Assembly: GCA_016126655.1 (NCBI GenBank)
Contig: CP065955.1
Location: 124,001-188,000, forward strand
Source: Aerococcaceae bacterium zg-1292
GTDB taxonomy: Bacteria; Bacillota; Bacilli; Lactobacillales; Aerococcaceae
Reading direction: 5' to 3'
DNA length: 64,000 nt
Below, piece by piece: positions 33,919-61,816 of the stretch. Position 1 is the first letter of the stretch. Every line of letters starts with the position of its first letter. The position numbers and the translations under genes were made by a program. The notes under the pieces were generated by a model, which saw only the letters and a list, made by a program, of their open reading frames with translations, did no database searches and was not told where the DNA came from.

Positions 33919-33924
33919 TAACGT

Positions 33925-34018
33925 AACACACAAGGGGTGCCATTGGCTGAGATGAGTGATATTACTTGAACCCTTATAACCTGATCGAGTTAGTACTTGC
34001 GTAGGAATGTGGTTTGTT
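33925..34018 (+). promoter_or_regulatory. TPP (thiamine pyrophosphate) riboswitch
   Basis: The THI-box core is unmistakable: AGGGGTGCC, GGCTGAGATGAG, ACCTGATCGAGTTAGTAC and TTGCGTAGGAATGT. It precedes a thiamine-precursor ABC operon. Binding of TPP would favour the terminator at 34045-34087. Confidence 0.96.
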
Positions 34019-34044
34019 TAAGTATATATAGCGAAACAGATGAC

Positions 34045-34087: not shown

Positions 34088-34151
34088 TGTGATTCTACAA
34101 AGAGAAGGAAGATGAGTAGCAGCAGAAGAATCATAAAAATATAATGGAAAA

Positions 34152-34269
34152 ACATGGTGTGGTTGCGGGCGCTCTGGCTTGAACCACTGGAGAAAACAGA
34201 CGATGTGCGAGGAGCGCATAGAGGAGGATTTTGAAGTGGATGTCAAGCCAGCCCAAGCGAACCAAAATA
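34152..34269 (+). repeat. 120-bp structured repeat, class 1 outer arm / apical hairpin A
   Basis: Outer arms GGGC (left) and GCCC (right), inner arms GGCTTGA / TCAAGCC, anchor ACCACT / AGTGG, and apical hairpin ATGTGC / GCGCAT. It ends GAACCAAAATA and is directly followed by a second copy. Both lie between the TPP terminator and the first gene of the operon. Confidence 0.9.
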
Positions 34270-34389
34270 GACATGGTGAGAGAGAGGACGCTCTGACTTG
34301 AACCACTGGAGCAGAGTGTGCAGAAGCGCAAGAGCGCTTCAAGCGCTAAGCGAAGTGGATGTCAAGGCAGTCCGAACGAACCAAAATAG
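34270..34389 (+). repeat. 120-bp structured repeat, class 1 / hairpin B
   Basis: Outer arms GGAC / GTCC, inner arms CTTGA / TCAAG, anchor ACCACT / AGTGG, and apical hairpin GAAGCGC / GCGCTTC. The right end GAACCAAAATAG abuts the GGAGGAG ribosome binding site of the permease gene. Confidence 0.92.
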
Positions 34390-42657: not shown

Positions 42658-43665
42658 TTAATCGATTTTTTTTGCAAATTGTTTACTGTCAAAATGTATT
42701 TCTTGACCGACTAATGTATGAATATTGCCGGCATCATCTTCGACGATTAAGTGTCCGTATTCATTAATGCCTCTAATCGTACCGTAGTGACTAGTTTGTA
42801 GTTGCTGATAATGGATACGCTGATTAATGCCGAGCAAATGTTGTTGATAATAAGCTAAATACTCACGCGCATCAACGTGTTGATGGTAGCCAACAAATAA
42901 TTGTAAAAAGCGTTCCAGTAATTGGATATAATTAAATTGTTCAGGCAAGGTGTCGCCAAACAAGGTGCCGGCAACTTGTTGCGTGGTGGTATCTGCTTGA
43001 CTAAAGTCACCAGCTAGATTCAAGCCGATACCGATAATAATTCCATTAACTTGTCCGGACTCCATATCCATAATGGATTCGCATAATATCCCGCCGACTT
43101 TACGGTAATTATAAAAGAGGTCATTGACCCATTTAATTTGCATCGGTTGATTGACAAATTCAGATAATGCTTGTCCCATCGCACTAGCGCTTAGTAAGGT
43201 GTAGAGTGGAATATCTTGTAGTACTTTTGTGTTAGGCTTAACCACGAGCGATAAATATAATCCGTCTTTAATGGATGAATGGAATTGGCGACCATGACGA
43301 CCGCGTCCTTTAGTTTGTTCTTTTGCGATAATTAAGGCAGGTTGATTTGGGTGCTTCCCTAAATGAATTTTTGCTAAATCATTGGTAGAAGATACTTGGT
43401 CATATAATTGAACGTGTAATGCTGGCCAAATCGCTTGCAGTGAATACGTTAGTTGGGCTTGATTTAATGTATTGGGTAAGGCTATTAACGCATAGCCGCG
43501 TTTATGAAATTGTTCGATAGCATAACCTTGGTTTTTCAACTCTTTGATGGCTTTCCAGATAGTATTACGCGAAACGTGTAATTGGTCGGCAATGTACTGA
43601 CCGGATACGGCATCCGGAAAGGCTTCAAGTAAATAGGTTAAGACCTGTTGTACAGTAGGTGACAT
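42658..43665 (-). CDS. birA: Biotin--protein ligase / biotin repressor
   Basis: This 335-residue bifunctional protein has an N-terminal winged HTH (about residues 5-60, SGQYIADQLHVSRNTIWKAIKEL) and a biotin ligase domain with the BioAMP loop GRGRHGR (120-126), KWVNDLFY and GGILCE. The C-terminal SH3-like domain is present. It attaches biotin to carboxylases and may repress bioY, with which it forms an operon. No clear BirA operator is seen upstream; that region is filled by the repeat array. Confidence 0.95.
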   Translation of the reverse strand: MSPTVQQVLTYLLEAFPDAVSGQYIADQLHVSRNTIWKAIKELKNQGYAIEQFHKRGYALIALPNTLNQAQLTYSLQAIWPALHVQLYDQVSSTNDLAKIHLGKHPNQPALIIAKEQTKGRGRHGRQFHSSIKDGLYLSLVVKPNTKVLQDIPLYTLLSASAMGQALSEFVNQPMQIKWVNDLFYNYRKVGGILCESIMDMESGQVNGIIIGIGLNLAGDFSQADTTTQQVAGTLFGDTLPEQFNYIQLLERFLQLFVGYHQHVDAREYLAYYQQHLLGINQRIHYQQLQTSHYGTIRGINEYGHLIVEDDAGNIHTLVGQEIHFDSKQFAKKID

Positions 43666-43740: not shown

Positions 43741-43860
43741 GGATTCTGGCTCGTTCGGACTGCCTCGACATCCACTTCAGAAGTCTGTTCTGTGCGCTAC
43801 TCGCACGCCACTGACTTCCTCCAGTGGTTCGAGTCAGAACGTCCTCTCTCGCACTATGTT
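43741..43860 (-). repeat. 120-bp structured repeat, class 1 / hairpin A (array member 5)
   Basis: On the minus strand: outer arms GGAC / GTCC, inner arms CTCGA / TCGAG, anchor ACCACT / AGTGG, apical hairpin GTGCG / CGCAC. It is exactly 120 bp and near-identical to the copies at 43981 and 44221. Confidence 0.93.
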
Positions 43861-43980
43861 GGATTCCGGCTCCAAGTCGCTGAAATGACGTCCACTTCGC
43901 ATAACTCTTGAAGCGCCTGAGCGCTTCAGCGCCTTCTGCTCCAGTGGTTCATTTCAGAGCGCTCCTTGTCGCACGATGTT
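43861..43980 (-). repeat. 120-bp structured repeat, class 2 / hairpin B (array member 4)
   Basis: On the minus strand: outer arms CAAG / CTTG, inner arms TGAAATGA / TCATTTCA, anchor ACCACT / AGTGG, apical hairpin GAAGCGC / GCGCTTC. It is exactly 120 bp. Confidence 0.93.
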
Positions 43981-44100
43981 GGATTCTGGCTCGTTCGGAC
44001 TGCCTCGACATCCACTTCAGAAGTCTGTTCTGTGCGCTACTCGCACGCCACTGACTTCCTCCAGTGGTTCGAGTCAGAACGTCCTCTCTCGCACTATGCT
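43981..44100 (-). repeat. 120-bp structured repeat, class 1 / hairpin A (array member 3)
   Basis: Same sequence as 43741-43860 apart from single-base changes near its outer end (GCACTATGCT instead of GCACTATGTT on the plus strand). Confidence 0.93.
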
Positions 44101-44220
44101 AGATTACGGCTCCAAGTCGCTGAAATGACGTCCACTTCGCATAACTCTTGAAGCGCCTGAGCGCTTCAGCGCCTTCTGCTCCAGTGGTTCATTTCAGAGC
44201 GCTCCTTGTCGCACGATGTT
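44101..44220 (-). repeat. 120-bp structured repeat, class 2 / hairpin B (array member 2)
   Basis: Same as 43861-43980 except a few bases at the right terminus (GTAATCT instead of GGAATCC on the minus strand). The 240-bp period with members 3 and 4 indicates duplication of a two-repeat unit. Confidence 0.93.
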
Positions 44221-44340
44221 GGATTCTGGCTCGTTCGGACTGCCTCGACATCCACTTCAGAAGTCTGTTCTGTGCGCTACTCGCACGCCACTGACTTCCT
44301 CCAGTGGTTCGAGTCAGAACGTCCTCTCTCGCACTATGTT
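44221..44340 (-). repeat. 120-bp structured repeat, class 1 / hairpin A (array member 1)
   Basis: First member of the array on the minus strand, identical in plan to 43741-43860. The minus-strand left end AACATAGTGCGAGAGAGG is intact. Confidence 0.93.
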
Positions 44341-44413
44341 ATACTGCTAAGATTATAAGGTAATTGAGTTTTTGTCAACCGTTTTATTAGAAAAGGTGAC
44401 GAAAAACATATAG

Positions 44414-45728: not shown

Positions 45729-45770
45729 ACATAGTGAGAGCGCGGGCGTTCTGACTTGAACTACTGGAAT
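45729..45770 (+). repeat. Left half of a split 120-bp repeat
   Basis: ACATAGTGAGAGCGCGGGCGTTCTGACTTGAACTACTGGAA is a complete left half (outer GGGC, inner GACTTGA). Its right half continues at 45895 after an inserted copy. Confidence 0.8.
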
Positions 45771-45893
45771 ACATAGTGTGTGAGAGAGGGTGTTCTGGCT
45801 TGAATCACTGGAGAAAGTTACCGGCGTGCGAGCAACGCACAAAGGGGACTTTTGAAGTGGACGTCAAGCCAACCCGAACGAACCGGCATTCAA
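45771..45893 (+). repeat. 120-bp structured repeat, class 1 / hairpin A, inserted in another copy
   Basis: Outer arms GGGT / ACCC, inner arms GGCTTGA / TCAAGCC, apical hairpin GTGCG / CGCAC. It is complete from CATAGTGTGTGAGAG to GAACGAACCGG and separates the two halves of a second element. Confidence 0.88.
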
Positions 45894-46992: not shown

Positions 46993-47061
46993 AGGATGTA
47001 CAAGTTGGAGCTGAGCAATCAATGCTCAGCACTATTCTGTTGTTTTCATTGATAAAGACAA

Positions 47062-47182
47062 ACCATAGTGAGAGAGAGGGCGTTTTGCCTCGAACCACTG
47101 GAGAAAGATGACGGCGTGTGCGAAAGCGCACAGAGGAATCTTTTGAAGTGGACGTCGAGGCAGCCCGAACGAACCAGAATAA
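47062..47182 (+). repeat. 120-bp structured repeat, class 1 / hairpin A
   Basis: Outer arms GGGC / GCCC, inner arms GCCTCGA / TCGAGGC (a distinct covarying pair), anchor ACCACT / AGTGG, apical hairpin GTGTGC / GCGCAC with one G-U pair. Confidence 0.94.
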
Positions 47183-47302
47183 ACCATAGTGAGAGTACGG
47201 GTGCTCTGACTTGAACCACTGGAGAAAGATGACGGCGTGTGCGAAAGCGCACAGAGGAATCTTTTGAAGTGGATGTCAAGTCAACCCGAACGAACCAGAA
47301 TA
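47183..47302 (+). repeat. 120-bp structured repeat, class 1 / hairpin A
   Basis: Apical half is identical to the preceding copy, but the arms differ and still pair: outer GGGT / ACCC, inner GACTTGA / TCAAGTC. Confidence 0.94.
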
Positions 47303-47422
47303 AACCATAGTGTGACAAGGAGTGCTTTGAAATGGACCACTGGAGCAGAGTACGCCGAAGCGCTGAGGCGCTTCAAGGACTATGTGAAGTGGAGACATTT
47401 CAATGACTTGGAACCAGAATAA
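47303..47422 (+). repeat. 120-bp structured repeat, class 2 / hairpin B
   Basis: Outer arms CAAG / CTTG, inner arms TTGAAATG / CATTTCAA, apical hairpin GAAGCGC / GCGCTTC. The end GAACCAGAATAA abuts GGAGG of cdaA. Confidence 0.94.
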
Positions 47423-47434
47423 GGAGGGGAAACA

Positions 47435-48283
47435 TTGATTGATTGGATAGTCCAATATATGGGCGATCAAACATTGGCTAAAGTATTAGATATACTCATC
47501 GTGTGGTTTTTGATTAACCAAATTTTAGTTTGGGCCCGTGGTACGCGTGTGATGAATATCTTAAAAGGTGTAGCCTTAATTTTCATTGCCCGTGCATTAA
47601 GTTCCATGCTTGGTTTGCAAACAATCGATTGGTTGCTAAATCAGGTTATTTCATGGGGTGTAGTAGCAGCGATTATTTTATTTCAGCCAGAGATTCGTAA
47701 AGCGTTGGAAAATCTCGGGCGCAATATGTTTCGTAATCGCAAAAATAATCAAAATCCAAGTGATAAATTGATTGCAGATATTGAAAAATCTGTTCAATAT
47801 ATGTCGCGTCGTAAAATTGGAGCGCTAATTTCGATTGAAGCGGAAGATAGCTTAGAAGAGTTTGTGAAAACAGGTATTGCGATGGATTCGTATGTCAGTA
47901 ATCAATTATTGATAAATATCTTTATTCCCAATACACCGCTACATGATGGGGCAGTGATTATTTCAGATTATCGCATTGCGTCAGCATCCAGCTATTTGCC
48001 ATTATCTGAAAGTACATTAATCCCTAAAGAATTAGGTACGCGTCACCGCGCGGCGATTGGTTTGGGTGAAGTAACGGATGCACTAACTGTTATTGTCTCC
48101 GAAGAAACAGGGGCAATTTCGCTCGTAAAGCGTGATCACCTACACCGTGATGTGACTGCGCAGGAATTGAATGAGTTATTGCATCAATATCTAGCCACCG
48201 AAACACCAGAAGAAGAAAAATCCTTTATGCAATTAGTAAAAGATTTCTTTTCTAGTATGACTCAAAAGGGGGAATCTTCATGA
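47435..48283 (+). CDS. cdaA: Diadenylate cyclase CdaA
   Basis: This 282-residue membrane-bound enzyme makes cyclic di-AMP from two ATP. Three N-terminal TM helices (about residues 10-85) are followed by the DAC domain with the catalytic DGAVIIS (about 170) and RHRAAIG (about 204-210) motifs. A TTG start follows AAGGAGGGG. It overlaps cdaR by 4 nt (ATGA). It is the first gene of the conserved cdaA-cdaR-glmM operon, with three repeat copies in its leader. Confidence 0.97.
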   Translation: MIDWIVQYMGDQTLAKVLDILIVWFLINQILVWARGTRVMNILKGVALIFIARALSSMLGLQTIDWLLNQVISWGVVAAIILFQPEIRKALENLGRNMFRNRKNNQNPSDKLIADIEKSVQYMSRRKIGALISIEAEDSLEEFVKTGIAMDSYVSNQLLINIFIPNTPLHDGAVIISDYRIASASSYLPLSESTLIPKELGTRHRAAIGLGEVTDALTVIVSEETGAISLVKRDHLHRDVTAQELNELLHQYLATETPEEEKSFMQLVKDFFSSMTQKGESS

Positions 48284-49326
48284 AAAAAAGTCCTTTTGAT
48301 AATATTTGGGTAATGCGTGCGGTCTCTTTATTTTTCGCAATATTATTGTTCGTGTCTGTAGCTAATGAAAATGGTAGCTCACGTACACGTCAACAAGCGA
48401 ATAATTCGGCAAGTGTCGAGTCAAGTGTTACTATATCCAATGTGCCAGTTACACTGGGTAAACATGAAGAAGGAACGTTTGTTAGTGGAATGCCTGAAAC
48501 GGTATCCGTCCGCTTAACCGGGCCTAAAAATATCATTAATCAAATATCGGCTGAGAATTTGAATGTGACCACCGAATCAATTGTGGGTGTAAAATCGGGT
48601 GTTAAAGCAATTCGTTTTGTTGTGAATGGTCTACCGAAGAGTGTCGAATATAAGGTGACGCCAGATTTATTTTATGGAACGATTTCAACAAAAGAGACGA
48701 AGGCACATCCAATAGAGTATGAAATTGCCAACAATGCGATTGCTGAAGGCTATGAAGCTACTAATGTTAAATTGTCAGCGCAAGAAGTAACATTGACTGG
48801 TGACCAAAATGAGATGGCCAAAGTTGCACGTGTCGTTGCGGTGATTAGTTCACAAACACCTCAAACCACGAACTTTACCAAACGTTATCGATTACAAGTG
48901 TTGGATAAAGAGGGGAAATTATTGGATGTCAATGTTTCGCAACCAGAAGTTGAAGCGGCGGTTGAAGTCACACAAAAAGTTCAAACTGTACCGTTGCGTT
49001 TGGTTCCAATGGGACAACGCTCAGAGTTTGCCTACCAATACGAGTTTGTTGGAGAATCGGTTGTGACACTAAAAGAAGCGAATCCATCAGTCGTGACATT
49101 AGATGTCTATGTGGATGTCAGTGATTTGACTGAATCCGGGACAGTAACAGGATATATTGACCAAAACAGTGGAGTGACAAATCCAACGACAGTATCAGTT
49201 AAGGTGACGATGACACCCGTTGAGCCAGCGAATCGTCATGAGGAAACAACTACCACGACAGAAGAAACGACGGATGAAGTAGAAGAAACGGCGACTGAAC
49301 CGAGTGAAGAAACAACAGAAAATTAA
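48280..49326 (+). CDS. cdaR: CdaA regulator with YbbR domains
   Basis: This 348-residue protein has one N-terminal TM segment (about residues 10-26) and an extracytoplasmic part with three or four YbbR repeats of about 80 residues. It ends in an acidic Thr/Glu tail (ETTTTTEETTDEVEETATEPSEETTEN). It controls CdaA activity in related species. The 4-nt overlap with cdaA implies coupled translation. Confidence 0.93.
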   Translation: MKKSPFDNIWVMRAVSLFFAILLFVSVANENGSSRTRQQANNSASVESSVTISNVPVTLGKHEEGTFVSGMPETVSVRLTGPKNIINQISAENLNVTTESIVGVKSGVKAIRFVVNGLPKSVEYKVTPDLFYGTISTKETKAHPIEYEIANNAIAEGYEATNVKLSAQEVTLTGDQNEMAKVARVVAVISSQTPQTTNFTKRYRLQVLDKEGKLLDVNVSQPEVEAAVEVTQKVQTVPLRLVPMGQRSEFAYQYEFVGESVVTLKEANPSVVTLDVYVDVSDLTESGTVTGYIDQNSGVTNPTTVSVKVTMTPVEPANRHEETTTTTEETTDEVEETATEPSEETTEN

Positions 49327-49341
49327 ATTTAATGATGAAAA

Positions 49342-49462
49342 GAATATAGTGTGACAATGGGAGTTTTGAAATGAACCACTGGAGAAAGATGATGGCGTGC
49401 GCCCAAGCGCACAGAGGCAACTTTTGAAGTGGACGTCATTTCATCCCATTGGAACCGGAATA
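49342..49462 (+). repeat. 120-bp structured repeat, class 2 / hairpin A
   Basis: Outer arms CAATGGGA / TCCCATTG, inner arms TGAAATGA / TCATTTCA, apical hairpin GTGCGC / GCGCAC. It starts 16 nt after the cdaR stop. Confidence 0.95.
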
Positions 49463-49581
49463 AACAAGGTGTGAGCGCGGGTGTTCTGGCTTGAACCACT
49501 GGAGCAAAGGTCGTAGAAGCGCCAAGGCGCTTCAAGAGCGATGTGAAGTGGACGTCAAGCCAACCCAAGCGAACCAGATTA
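49463..49581 (+). repeat. 120-bp structured repeat, class 1 / hairpin B
   Basis: Outer arms GGGT / ACCC, inner arms GGCTTGA / TCAAGCC, apical hairpin GAAGCGC / GCGCTTC. It lies between two near-identical class-2 copies. Confidence 0.95.
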
Positions 49582-49702
49582 AAACATAGTGTGACAATGG
49601 GAGTTTTGAAATGAACCACTGGAGAAAGATGACGGCGTGCGCTCAAGCGCACAGAGGCAACTTTTGAAGTGGACGTCATTTCATCCCATTGGAACCGGAA
49701 TA
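49582..49702 (+). repeat. 120-bp structured repeat, class 2 / hairpin A
   Basis: Near-identical to 49342-49462, with GTGCGC / GCGCAC around TCAA instead of CCAA. It ends GGAACCGGAATA, abutting the AAGGAG of glmM. Confidence 0.95.
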
Positions 49703-52165: not shown

Positions 52166-52560
52166 ATGTGCGACAAAGAGTAGGTTGAAATGAATTAGCC
52201 ATACACAGAATGTAGTCTCAGGTGTTTTGTCTTGAGTCATTGGAAAACAGAGTGTAGTCTCAGGTGTTTTGCTTGAATCGCTGGAAAACAGAGGATGAGC
52301 TCAGGTGTATTGCCGTGAACCACTGGAACATAAGGTGTGAGCCTATGTGCTTTGTCTTGAACCGCTGAAAAACAGAGTGTGAACTAAGGTGCTTTACGTG
52401 AATCGCGAAAAGCAAGCACCATTGCTTTGCACTACTGGAACACAAAGTGTAGGCGATTATAGCCTTGAATTGCTGGAGTTGCCGTCTTAGTAGTCTGCGG
52501 GCGCTTCAAGCGCTATGCGAATTAGCCGTCAGAACTGCCTGGGTAAATCAGAACAAACAA
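52166..52560 (+). repeat. Ladder of decayed left halves of the 120-bp repeat
   Basis: About six or seven truncated left halves of 50-60 bp follow each other. Each has the pattern (C/A)AGAGTGTGAG-CTCAGGTG-TTTTG-CTTGAATC-CTGGAA with much drift. The last is extended to GGGCGCTTCAAGCGCTATGCGAA, TCAGAACTGCC and AAATCAGAACAA. No right arms pair with them. No gene is plausible here. Confidence 0.75.
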
Positions 52561-54329: not shown

Positions 54330-54553
54330 CAGATATAGATTAGTAATCTTTCATGTACATCGCTAGAGAACGTTGTCTGAGGCTGGAAACAACGGATGGA
54401 TGGTTAGATGAACCTACTATAAGGTAATCAGTTGGGCGGACACCCTTATCAGTCATAAGTTGGTTTATCTATAAGGATAAACAAATAAGGTGGTACCGCG
54501 GAGTAGCTGTTCTTCGTCCTTAATTTCTAAGGATGAAGAACAGCTATTTTTAA
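54330..54553 (+). promoter_or_regulatory. T-box leader, proline-specific
   Basis: Hallmarks in order: AGAGAACG at the base of stem I, GAGGCTGG loop, GAACCTAC on the 3' side of stem I with CCT (Pro) as the specifier, and the T-box AAGGTGGTACCGCGG (54487-54501). The terminator AGCTGTTCTTCGTCCTT / AAGGATGAAGAACAGCT followed by ATTTTT ends it. Uncharged tRNA-Pro should allow read-through into proS. Confidence 0.93.
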
Positions 54554-54554
54554 C

Positions 54555-54596
54555 ATAGTGCGAGAGAGGGCGTTCTGCCTTGAACCACTGGAAAAC
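54555..54596 (+). repeat. Left half of the 120-bp repeat
   Basis: AACATAGTGCGAGAGAGGGCGTTCTGCCTTGAACCACTGGAAAA is a full left half with no right half. It directly follows the T-box terminator. Confidence 0.8.
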
Positions 54597-54715
54597 ACGG
54601 TGTGAGAGAGGGTGCTCTGACTCAGACCACTGGAGCAGAGGTCGTAGAAGTGCATAAGCACTTCAAGAGCTATGCGAAGTGGAAGTCAAGTCAATCCAAG
54701 CGAGCCCAAATATAA
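54597..54715 (+). repeat. 120-bp structured repeat, class 1 / hairpin B
   Basis: Outer arms GGGT / ATCC (one G-U), inner arms weakened (GACTCAGA / TCAAGTC). The apical hairpin is GAAGTGC / GCACTTC, a compensatory change from GAAGCGC / GCGCTTC. It is followed by another left terminus leading into a CGGGAAA / TTTCCCG hairpin (54723-54743) before proS. Confidence 0.85.
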
Positions 54716-56821: not shown

Positions 56822-56943
56822 AACCATAAAGTGAGAGAGGCTGTTCTGGCTTGAACCACTGGAGAAAAAAACGCAGGAGAGCGTCAAGCGCTCCAAGAGT
56901 TTTTCGAAGTGGACGTCAAGACAAGCCGAACGAACCAGAATAA
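56822..56943 (+). repeat. 120-bp structured repeat, class 1, divergent apical hairpin
   Basis: Outer arms GGCT / AGCC (a fourth pairing variant), inner arms CTTGA / TCAAG, anchor ACCACT / AGTGG. The apical hairpin is altered to GGAGAGCG / CGCTCC. The end GAACCAGAATAA abuts AAGGAGTG of the next gene. Confidence 0.9.
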
Positions 56944-61697: not shown

Positions 61698-61816
61698 TAA
61701 CATAGTGCGACAACGAGCGATTTGAAATGAACCACTGGAGAAAGCCAACGGCGTGCGAGAAGCGCACAGAGGCGGCTTTTGAAGTGGAGTCATTTCAGCG
61801 AGTTGGAGCTGGAATA
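61698..61816 (+). repeat. 120-bp structured repeat, class 2 / hairpin A
   Basis: Outer arms CAAC / GTTG (a third class-2 variant), inner arms TGAAATGA / TCATTTCA, apical hairpin GTGCG / CGCAC. It ends GGAGCTGGAATAA at the AAGGAG of the ATPase gene. The left flank also reads TGGAATA, suggesting an earlier tandem copy. Confidence 0.93.

What the first reader, a model, noticed from the sequence alone, without database searches (positions are those of the whole stretch)
47062..49702. Arms and apical hairpins recombine as independent modules
Two outer-arm classes (1: CTTGA/TCAAG type; 2: GAAATGA/TCATTTC type) and two apical hairpins (A: GTGCGC; B: GAAGCGC) occur in all four combinations: 1A (47062, 47183), 1B (34270, 49463), 2A (49342, 49582, 61698), 2B (47303, 43861). 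Within a copy the arms always match each other, while the hairpin is free. This resembles the modular boxA/B/C layout of pneumococcal BOX elements but with covarying arms. It suggests exchange at the conserved ACCACTGGAG / GAAGTGGA anchors.
Basis: seen in the sequence. Interest (0 to 1): 0.7.

Follow-up and report, generated by a model that had tools for sequence, protein, structure and literature searches.

The report
Modular BOX-like repeats that swap hairpins
This bacterium carries about 300 copies of a small folded repeat, mostly just in front of genes, whose outer stem and inner hairpin have been shuffled against each other like interchangeable parts while each part keeps its own base-pairing; relatives of the repeat occur across much of the order.

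Summary
In the 2.42 Mb genome I collected 300 copies of a ~119-nt unit. Hairpins fall into two clusters of 148 each. Among copies with matched arms, all four combinations are common (1A 105, 1B 119, 2A 33, 2B 15). With one copy per array, 5'-arm and 3'-arm distances correlate (r 0.67), as do the hairpin halves (0.77), but arms versus hairpin barely do (0.046). Exchange at the anchors is supported: at a locus shared with a sister species, unit 1 kept its 5' arm and hairpin but took its neighbour's 3' arm, with the break at GAAGTGGA. Other chimeras and 21 half-units also break at the anchors. The anchors are a helix plus a GGA/GA internal loop of an RNA fold; in Aerococcus the helix changes with full compensation while the loop stays. 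Units lie in gene orientation, typically ending right before the ribosome-binding site. Homologues occur in 14 of 54 sampled genera of the order; Rfam has no model. Best reading: a BOX-like modular repeat, constrained as RNA and reshuffled by recombination at shared anchors. Movement and function are untested. New variant of a known kind.

The parts
47061..47180 (+). unit, arms class 1 (GCCTCGA/TCGAGGC), hairpin A
47182..47301 (+). unit, arms class 1 (GACTTGA/TCAAGTC), hairpin A identical over 42 nt to the previous unit; arms differ at 11 positions, largely by compensated pairs
47303..47421 (+). unit, arms class 2 (GAAATG/CATTTC), hairpin B; ends at AATAAGGAGG before the start of cdaA (47435)
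49342..49460 (+). unit, class 2, hairpin A
49462..49579 (+). unit, class 1, hairpin B
49582..49700 (+). unit, class 2, hairpin A; followed at once by AAGGAG and the glmM start (49714)
34150..34268 (+). unit, class 1, hairpin A
34269..34387 (+). unit, class 1, hairpin B; ends before AGGAGG of the next gene (34404)
43741..44341 (-). five-unit array, alternating 1A-2B-1A-2B-1A, upstream of a BirA-type biotin ligase gene (42658-43665, minus); the same site in sister species G003 is 27 nt without an element
45730..45770 (+). 5' half-unit: leader, 5' arm and anchor (here ACTACTGGA) followed directly by the next leader
45771..45886 (+). unit, class 1, hairpin A, followed by a 3' half-unit
52205..52382 (+). 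about four degenerate 42-nt copies resembling 5' half-units only
54551..54592 (+). 5' half-unit
54593..54710 (+). unit, class 1, hairpin B
56822..56940 (+). unit, class 1, hairpin of B type (among the weakest folds of the set)
61698..61813 (+). unit, class 2, hairpin A; ends at AATAAGGAG upstream of an ABC-transporter ATPase gene (61831)

Best explanation
These are copies of a non-coding, BOX-like interspersed repeat of about 119 nt that folds as RNA into one long hairpin: leader GUGNGA, outer and inner arm helices, a 5-bp anchor helix, a GGA/GA internal loop and an apical hairpin. SHOWN: arms and hairpin assort almost independently between loci; one exchange at the 3' anchor happened since the split from the sister species; the anchor helix is a real, compensated helix in Aerococcus; units follow gene orientation. 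INFERRED: because this genus has homogenised the anchors to CCACTGGA(G) and GAAGTGGA, neighbouring and distant units exchange hairpins or arms by recombination or template switching with breakpoints in these 8-9 nt blocks; one exchange gives mismatched arms, a second restores matching; mismatched forms are rare because the folded RNA is under selection, so what survives looks like free swapping of a self-matched hairpin inside self-matched arms. INFERRED: the repeat is largely selfish, multiplies locally by tandem duplication, and persists in 5' leaders because the compact hairpin leaves the ribosome-binding site free; it may also tune mRNA stability or translation.
For: Independence: Mantel 5' arm-3' arm 0.67, hairpin halves 0.77, arms-hairpin 0.046; contingency. 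Swaps: 171095/171216 share an identical hairpin with arms differing at 11 nt; 2058245/2058364 have identical arms with opposite hairpin class. Breakpoints: G000 1079142 has the same 5' arm and near-identical hairpin as its G003 orthologue but the 3' arm of its neighbour (0 differences), at a shared locus; G003 L128:14080 = 2X2, 14198 = 1Y1, 14316 = 2X1, L130:212 = 1Y2; 21 half-units end at the 5' anchor. RNA level: G.U pairs exceed A.C mismatches 128:21 in copies co-directional with replication and 19:9 in the others; in a motif-only search of genome G045 all 51 units form all four free anchor pairs (shuffles: mean 14, maximum 23), with at least six different helices. Orientation: where both flanking genes point the same way, elements are co-oriented 89 to 6. 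Placement: SD-like sequence follows 71 of 114 arrays with a co-directional downstream gene (examples). Array-specific junction letters repeat at inner junctions, as expected from local duplication.
Against: Double exchange with matched arms was never caught in the act. Inner-arm G.U excess is 34:12 in co-directional copies but 3:7 in the others, so arm matching alone does not prove RNA-level selection; DNA-level palindrome correction could contribute. Breakpoints cannot be placed more finely than the conserved block itself. In Aerococcus, linkage of arms and hairpin (r 0.61 and 0.51) could reflect descent of subfamilies rather than anchor mismatch; within anchor groups r ranges from 0.13 to 0.88. 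No transposase, promoter, transcript or phenotype was shown.
Confidence: 0.65

Rival explanations
1. Folded-DNA mechanism: the unit is a hairpin of single-stranded DNA (IS200/IS605- or REP-like, or a replication template-switch substrate). Arms are kept matched by copying one arm from the other on the same strand, and hairpins are replaced as whole folded-out blocks.
For: Arm mismatches follow strand bias rather than RNA rules (34:12 against 3:7). Units go with the replication direction 248 to 51. Left flanks often carry (G)AATA(A), like the unit's own 3' end.
Against: No Y1 transposase correlates with copy number: G000 has only a decayed one, while G045, G050 and G055 have none yet dozens of units. 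Orientation tends to follow genes also on the lagging strand (8 of 10 arrays). Anchor and hairpin helices keep the G.U excess in both orientations.
Confidence: 0.15
2. Host-adopted cis-regulator: the units are a dispersed regulatory RNA bound at GUGNGA and GGA/GA by a conserved protein or small RNA; arms and hairpin are free spacers, so their independence reflects neutrality and not a recombination mechanism.
For: Invariant leader and internal loop across families of the order; precise abutment to the ribosome-binding site; gene orientation; some arrays conserved between species.
Against: Copy number varies from zero to hundreds among close relatives; many orthologous sites lack the unit; long identical hairpins inside different arms require sequence transfer, not drift.
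Confidence: 0.13
3. Ordinary concerted evolution of tandem repeats only: hairpins are homogenised between neighbours by unequal crossing-over, with no special role for the anchors.
For: Adjacent units are often identical (34 of 115 adjacent pairs) and next-nearest units too; at 1015374/1015492 each species has its own homogenised pair.
Against: Near-identical hairpins with very different arms also occur between distant arrays (42 of 97 pairs with arm distance of 8 or more); visible breaks and half-units cluster at the anchors.
Confidence: 0.07

Closest known systems
BOX elements of Streptococcus pneumoniae (boxA-boxB(n)-boxC; Croucher et al. 2011, PMC3049150)
   Same: Modular interspersed repeat with outer modules forming a stem around an inner module, over 100 copies, lone or partial modules, predicted RNA fold, co-transcription effects proposed.
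   Different: BOX varies the number of boxB modules; here there is one hairpin per unit and whole units are tandem. BOX has terminal inverted repeats and target duplications and is over-represented between convergent genes; here no terminal inverted repeats are evident and arrays abut ribosome-binding sites in gene orientation.
BOX-type repeats of Streptococcus suis (boxA/C and boxE/F around a common boxB; PMC3049150)
   Same: Two different outer-module pairs surround the same type of inner module: the closest published precedent for arm/hairpin reassortment.
   Different: There the outer pairs differ greatly in length and boxD can be added; no independence test or breakpoint evidence was found in the paper's section on them.
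EFAR repeats of Enterococcus faecalis (from memory; no paper on them found in the held library)
   Same: Recalled as miniature insertion sequences of variable modular assembly folding into stem-loops in the same order.
   Different: Recalled as about 170 bp with two independent stem-loops inserting into stem-loop targets; sequence relation not tested.
REP/BIME elements and RAYT (IS200/IS605) systems
   Same: Intergenic, structured, high copy, tandem clusters.
   Different: No associated Y1 transposase; head-to-tail, not alternating orientation; units several times longer (general knowledge of REP length).

Membership tests
BOX elements | Composite of outer A and C modules that pair, around inner module(s) | tested here: met
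   5' and 3' arms pair around a separate hairpin; modules assort independently
BOX elements | Variable number of inner boxB modules | tested here: not met
   One hairpin of 39-44 nt between the anchors in every one of the 300 units collected (the search itself allowed 36-50 nt, so longer inner arrays would have been missed); number varies by whole units or half-units
BOX elements | Sequence homology to pneumococcal boxA | tested here: inconclusive
   BOXA1R primer sequence (recalled) not found in the window with up to 3 mismatches; a weak test, the full boxA model was not available
BOX elements | Terminal inverted repeats and target-site duplication | tested here: inconclusive
   5' end AACATAGTG and 3' end CCAGAAT(AA) are not inverted repeats by inspection; 2-nt flanking identities are seen in some arrays only
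BOX elements | Over-representation between convergent genes | tested here: not met
   114 of 137 arrays have a co-directional downstream gene, 17 lie at the 3' end of a gene facing a convergent one
REP/RAYT (IS200/IS605) | Associated Y1 transposase gene | tested here: not met
   PF01797: only a decayed copy in G000, none in G045, G050, G055
Known RNA family (Rfam 15) | Match to a curated covariance model | tested here: not met
   Only a TPP riboswitch in the window; only weak sub-threshold matches in Aerococcaceae loci
MITE of a DDE insertion sequence | Terminal inverted repeats shared with a resident insertion sequence | not tested
   No terminal inverted repeats evident; resident insertion sequences were not surveyed
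EFAR (Enterococcus faecalis repeats) | Sequence and L-shaped two-stem-loop fold | not tested
   No EFAR sequence or paper in the held library

The most novel reading that the evidence does not exclude
An order-wide mobile RNA or ssDNA element family in which a conserved leader (GUGNGA) and GGA/GA internal loop are the recognition core for an unknown factor, while arm and hairpin cassettes are exchanged combinatorially at shared anchors, continually generating new 5' leaders in front of many genes.
Probability: 0.2. Interest if true: 0.78.

Novelty: new variant of a known kind. Interest (0 to 1): 0.58.

Why it matters
BOX-like repeats have long been described as modular, but how modules mix has been hard to see. 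Here hundreds of copies in two complete sister genomes, with near-uniform anchors and two freely mixing modules, make the process measurable: module linkage, breakpoint position and loss of mismatched forms can all be counted. The anchors' RNA role (covarying helix, invariant loop) gives a direct structural test, and the exact placement at ribosome-binding sites makes an effect on translation or mRNA decay easy to assay.

Tried and rejected
Named-genome pattern scan gave only two chance-like matches (near relatives may be left out). Plasmid and phage searches with the window units gave nothing; an Aerococcus unit hit an Aerococcus tenax plasmid, naming the genus. Y1 transposase as partner: rejected by lack of correlation. 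Rfam families: none. Replication direction as the sole cause of orientation: disfavoured by lagging-strand genes, 8 of 10 arrays co-oriented with the genes. A first regular expression for motif-only units failed and was redone. Pairing of the anchor helix was imposed by the search; one search repeats it without any pairing requirement. Target-site duplication: looked for, not resolved.

Full report
WHAT IS THERE. The window is positions 124001-188000 of a single-contig genome of 2,424,983 bases. The cited copies are present as described. A unit runs from AACATAGTGNGA to GA(A/G)CCAGAAT, about 119 nt, and folds into one long hairpin; the 12 window units folded lie 2.1-6.5 SD below dinucleotide shuffles. 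Rfam finds only a TPP riboswitch in the window. The anchor pattern CCACTGGA-N(36-54)-GAAGTGGA occurs 244 times in the genome, against 0 for the reversed control; allowing one mismatch per anchor I collected 300 units in 146 arrays from stretches around the hits.

INDEPENDENCE. Hairpin cores cluster into two groups of 148 with three outliers. Counts with matched arms are 1A 105, 1B 119, 2A 33, 2B 15 (odds ratio 0.40, nominal p 0.007); after removing near-identical copies 62/73/16/9 (p 0.13). With one copy per array, Mantel correlations are 0.67 for 5' arm with 3' arm, 0.77 for the two hairpin halves and 0.046 for arms with hairpin, null about -0.03 to 0.04. Adjacent units show both kinds of swap: identical hairpins with different arms (171095/171216, that is window 47061/47182) and identical arms with opposite hairpins (2058245/2058364). 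So modules do assort almost freely. The p values above treat copies as independent, which they are not; the effect sizes carry the argument.

EXCHANGE AT ANCHORS. The sister species G003 (complete genome, same genus) shares some arrays. At one of them (G000 1079142-1079261; G003 L129 7351-7470, flanked by the same gene start) unit 1 of G003 has matched arms (ACCTCGA/TCGAGGT). In G000 unit 1 has the same 5' arm and a near-identical hairpin, but its 3' arm equals that of unit 2 without a difference. This is one exchange after the species split with the break at GAAGTGGA. In G003, four units in nearby arrays have the forms 2X2, 1Y1, 2X1 and 1Y2. In G000, 216573 and 1866207 combine a class 2 5' arm with the hairpin and 3' arm of a neighbour. 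Twenty-one 5' half-units stop right after the CCACTGGA anchor and continue with a new leader. The single-exchange products have mismatched arms; they are a few per cent of copies. A hairpin swap with matched arms needs two such steps or a conversion tract between the anchors. That the intermediates are rare implies removal or repair: inference.

WHAT THE ANCHORS ARE. Covariance searches find the unit in 29 of 60 genomes sampled from the family and in 14 of 54 sampled genera of the order. An Aerococcus tenax plasmid carries a unit 81% identical to one from genus g9, so g9 is very probably Aerococcus and the family Aerococcaceae (inference). In G045 and G055 (g9) the 5-bp anchor helix takes many forms (CCTCT/AGAGG, TGACT/AGTCA, TCCTT/AAGGA, TCGTT/AACGA and more). 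Searching with leader, GGA, GAA and tail motifs only, all 51 units of G045 form all four free anchor pairs (shuffles at most 23) and 38 of 45 do in G055. The GUGNGA leader and the GGA/GA loop also recur in other families of the order, though the search motif there included them. Hence the anchors are a helix and a conserved internal loop of an RNA fold. In the window's genus the helix is uniform and modules mix freely; in g9 it is subfamily-specific and arms and hairpin stay linked (r 0.61 and 0.51; G003 0.37). This fits the idea that shared anchors permit exchange, but subfamily descent explains it as well.

RNA OR DNA. G.U pairs exceed A.C mismatches 128:21 in copies running with replication and 19:9 in the others; without the inner arms the numbers are 94:9 and 16:2. 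Inner arms alone are 34:12 and 3:7, so there a strand-dependent mutation bias is visible. The apical hairpin and anchor helix look constrained as RNA; arm matching may have a DNA-level share.

PLACEMENT. Between genes of one direction, arrays point with the genes 89 to 6; on lagging-strand genes 8 to 2. Of 114 arrays with a co-directional downstream gene, 71 show an SD-like sequence directly after the last unit, typically CCAGAAT-A(A)GGAGG-start, as before glmM and cdaA in the window. Gene calls there are simple ORF calls, so these numbers are approximate. Orthologous sites in G003 are often empty, for example a 605-bp stretch against 27 bp upstream of the BirA-type gene. Inner junctions of an array repeat array-specific letters, which fits local tandem duplication. 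No terminal inverted repeats are evident and a target duplication is unresolved. A Y1 transposase does not track with copy number.

COMPARISON. Croucher et al. 2011 (PMC3049150) describe BOX as boxA-boxB(n)-boxC, with terminal inverted repeats and target duplication, enriched between convergent genes, and in S. suis two outer pairs (A/C and E/F) around the same boxB. The present repeat works like that in being modular and is closest in spirit to the S. suis case, but fails several BOX criteria tested here, so it is BOX-like, not BOX. EFAR of Enterococcus faecalis is a lead from memory only.

VERDICT. Observation confirmed; interpretation supported with the refinement that exchange is stepwise and the anchors are structural. 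I judge it a new variant of a known kind. Movement and function remain inference.

Noticed in passing
window 52205-52382: A degenerate tandem array of about four 42-nt copies resembling only the 5' half of the unit (leader, 5' arm, anchor); no hairpin or 3' arm.
   Followed up: partly
L186, L187, L195, L204-L223 (genomes G055 and G045, genus g9): Arrays made of several unit subfamilies with different anchor helices in succession; up to 107 units per genome. The compensation in the anchor helix is very strong and would make a good Rfam seed.
   Followed up: partly
L224-L234 (genomes G185, G110, G124; another family of the order): Nearly identical units (GTGAGACAAAAAGCGTTTAGACCCGAATCACTGGA...) recur as dispersed copies in three genomes of that family, hinting at recent spread or horizontal transfer.
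   Followed up: no
G000 1015374-1015492 and G003 L127:5211-5330: A shared two-unit array in which each species has its own homogenised pair: concerted evolution at one locus.
   Followed up: partly
G001, G002 (same genus): Only 1-2 units in these draft genomes against hundreds in G000 and at least 140 in G003; draft assembly or a real difference is not settled.
   Followed up: no
window 33923-34024: A TPP riboswitch lies shortly upstream of the two-unit array at 34150-34387 and an ABC-transporter permease gene.
   Followed up: no
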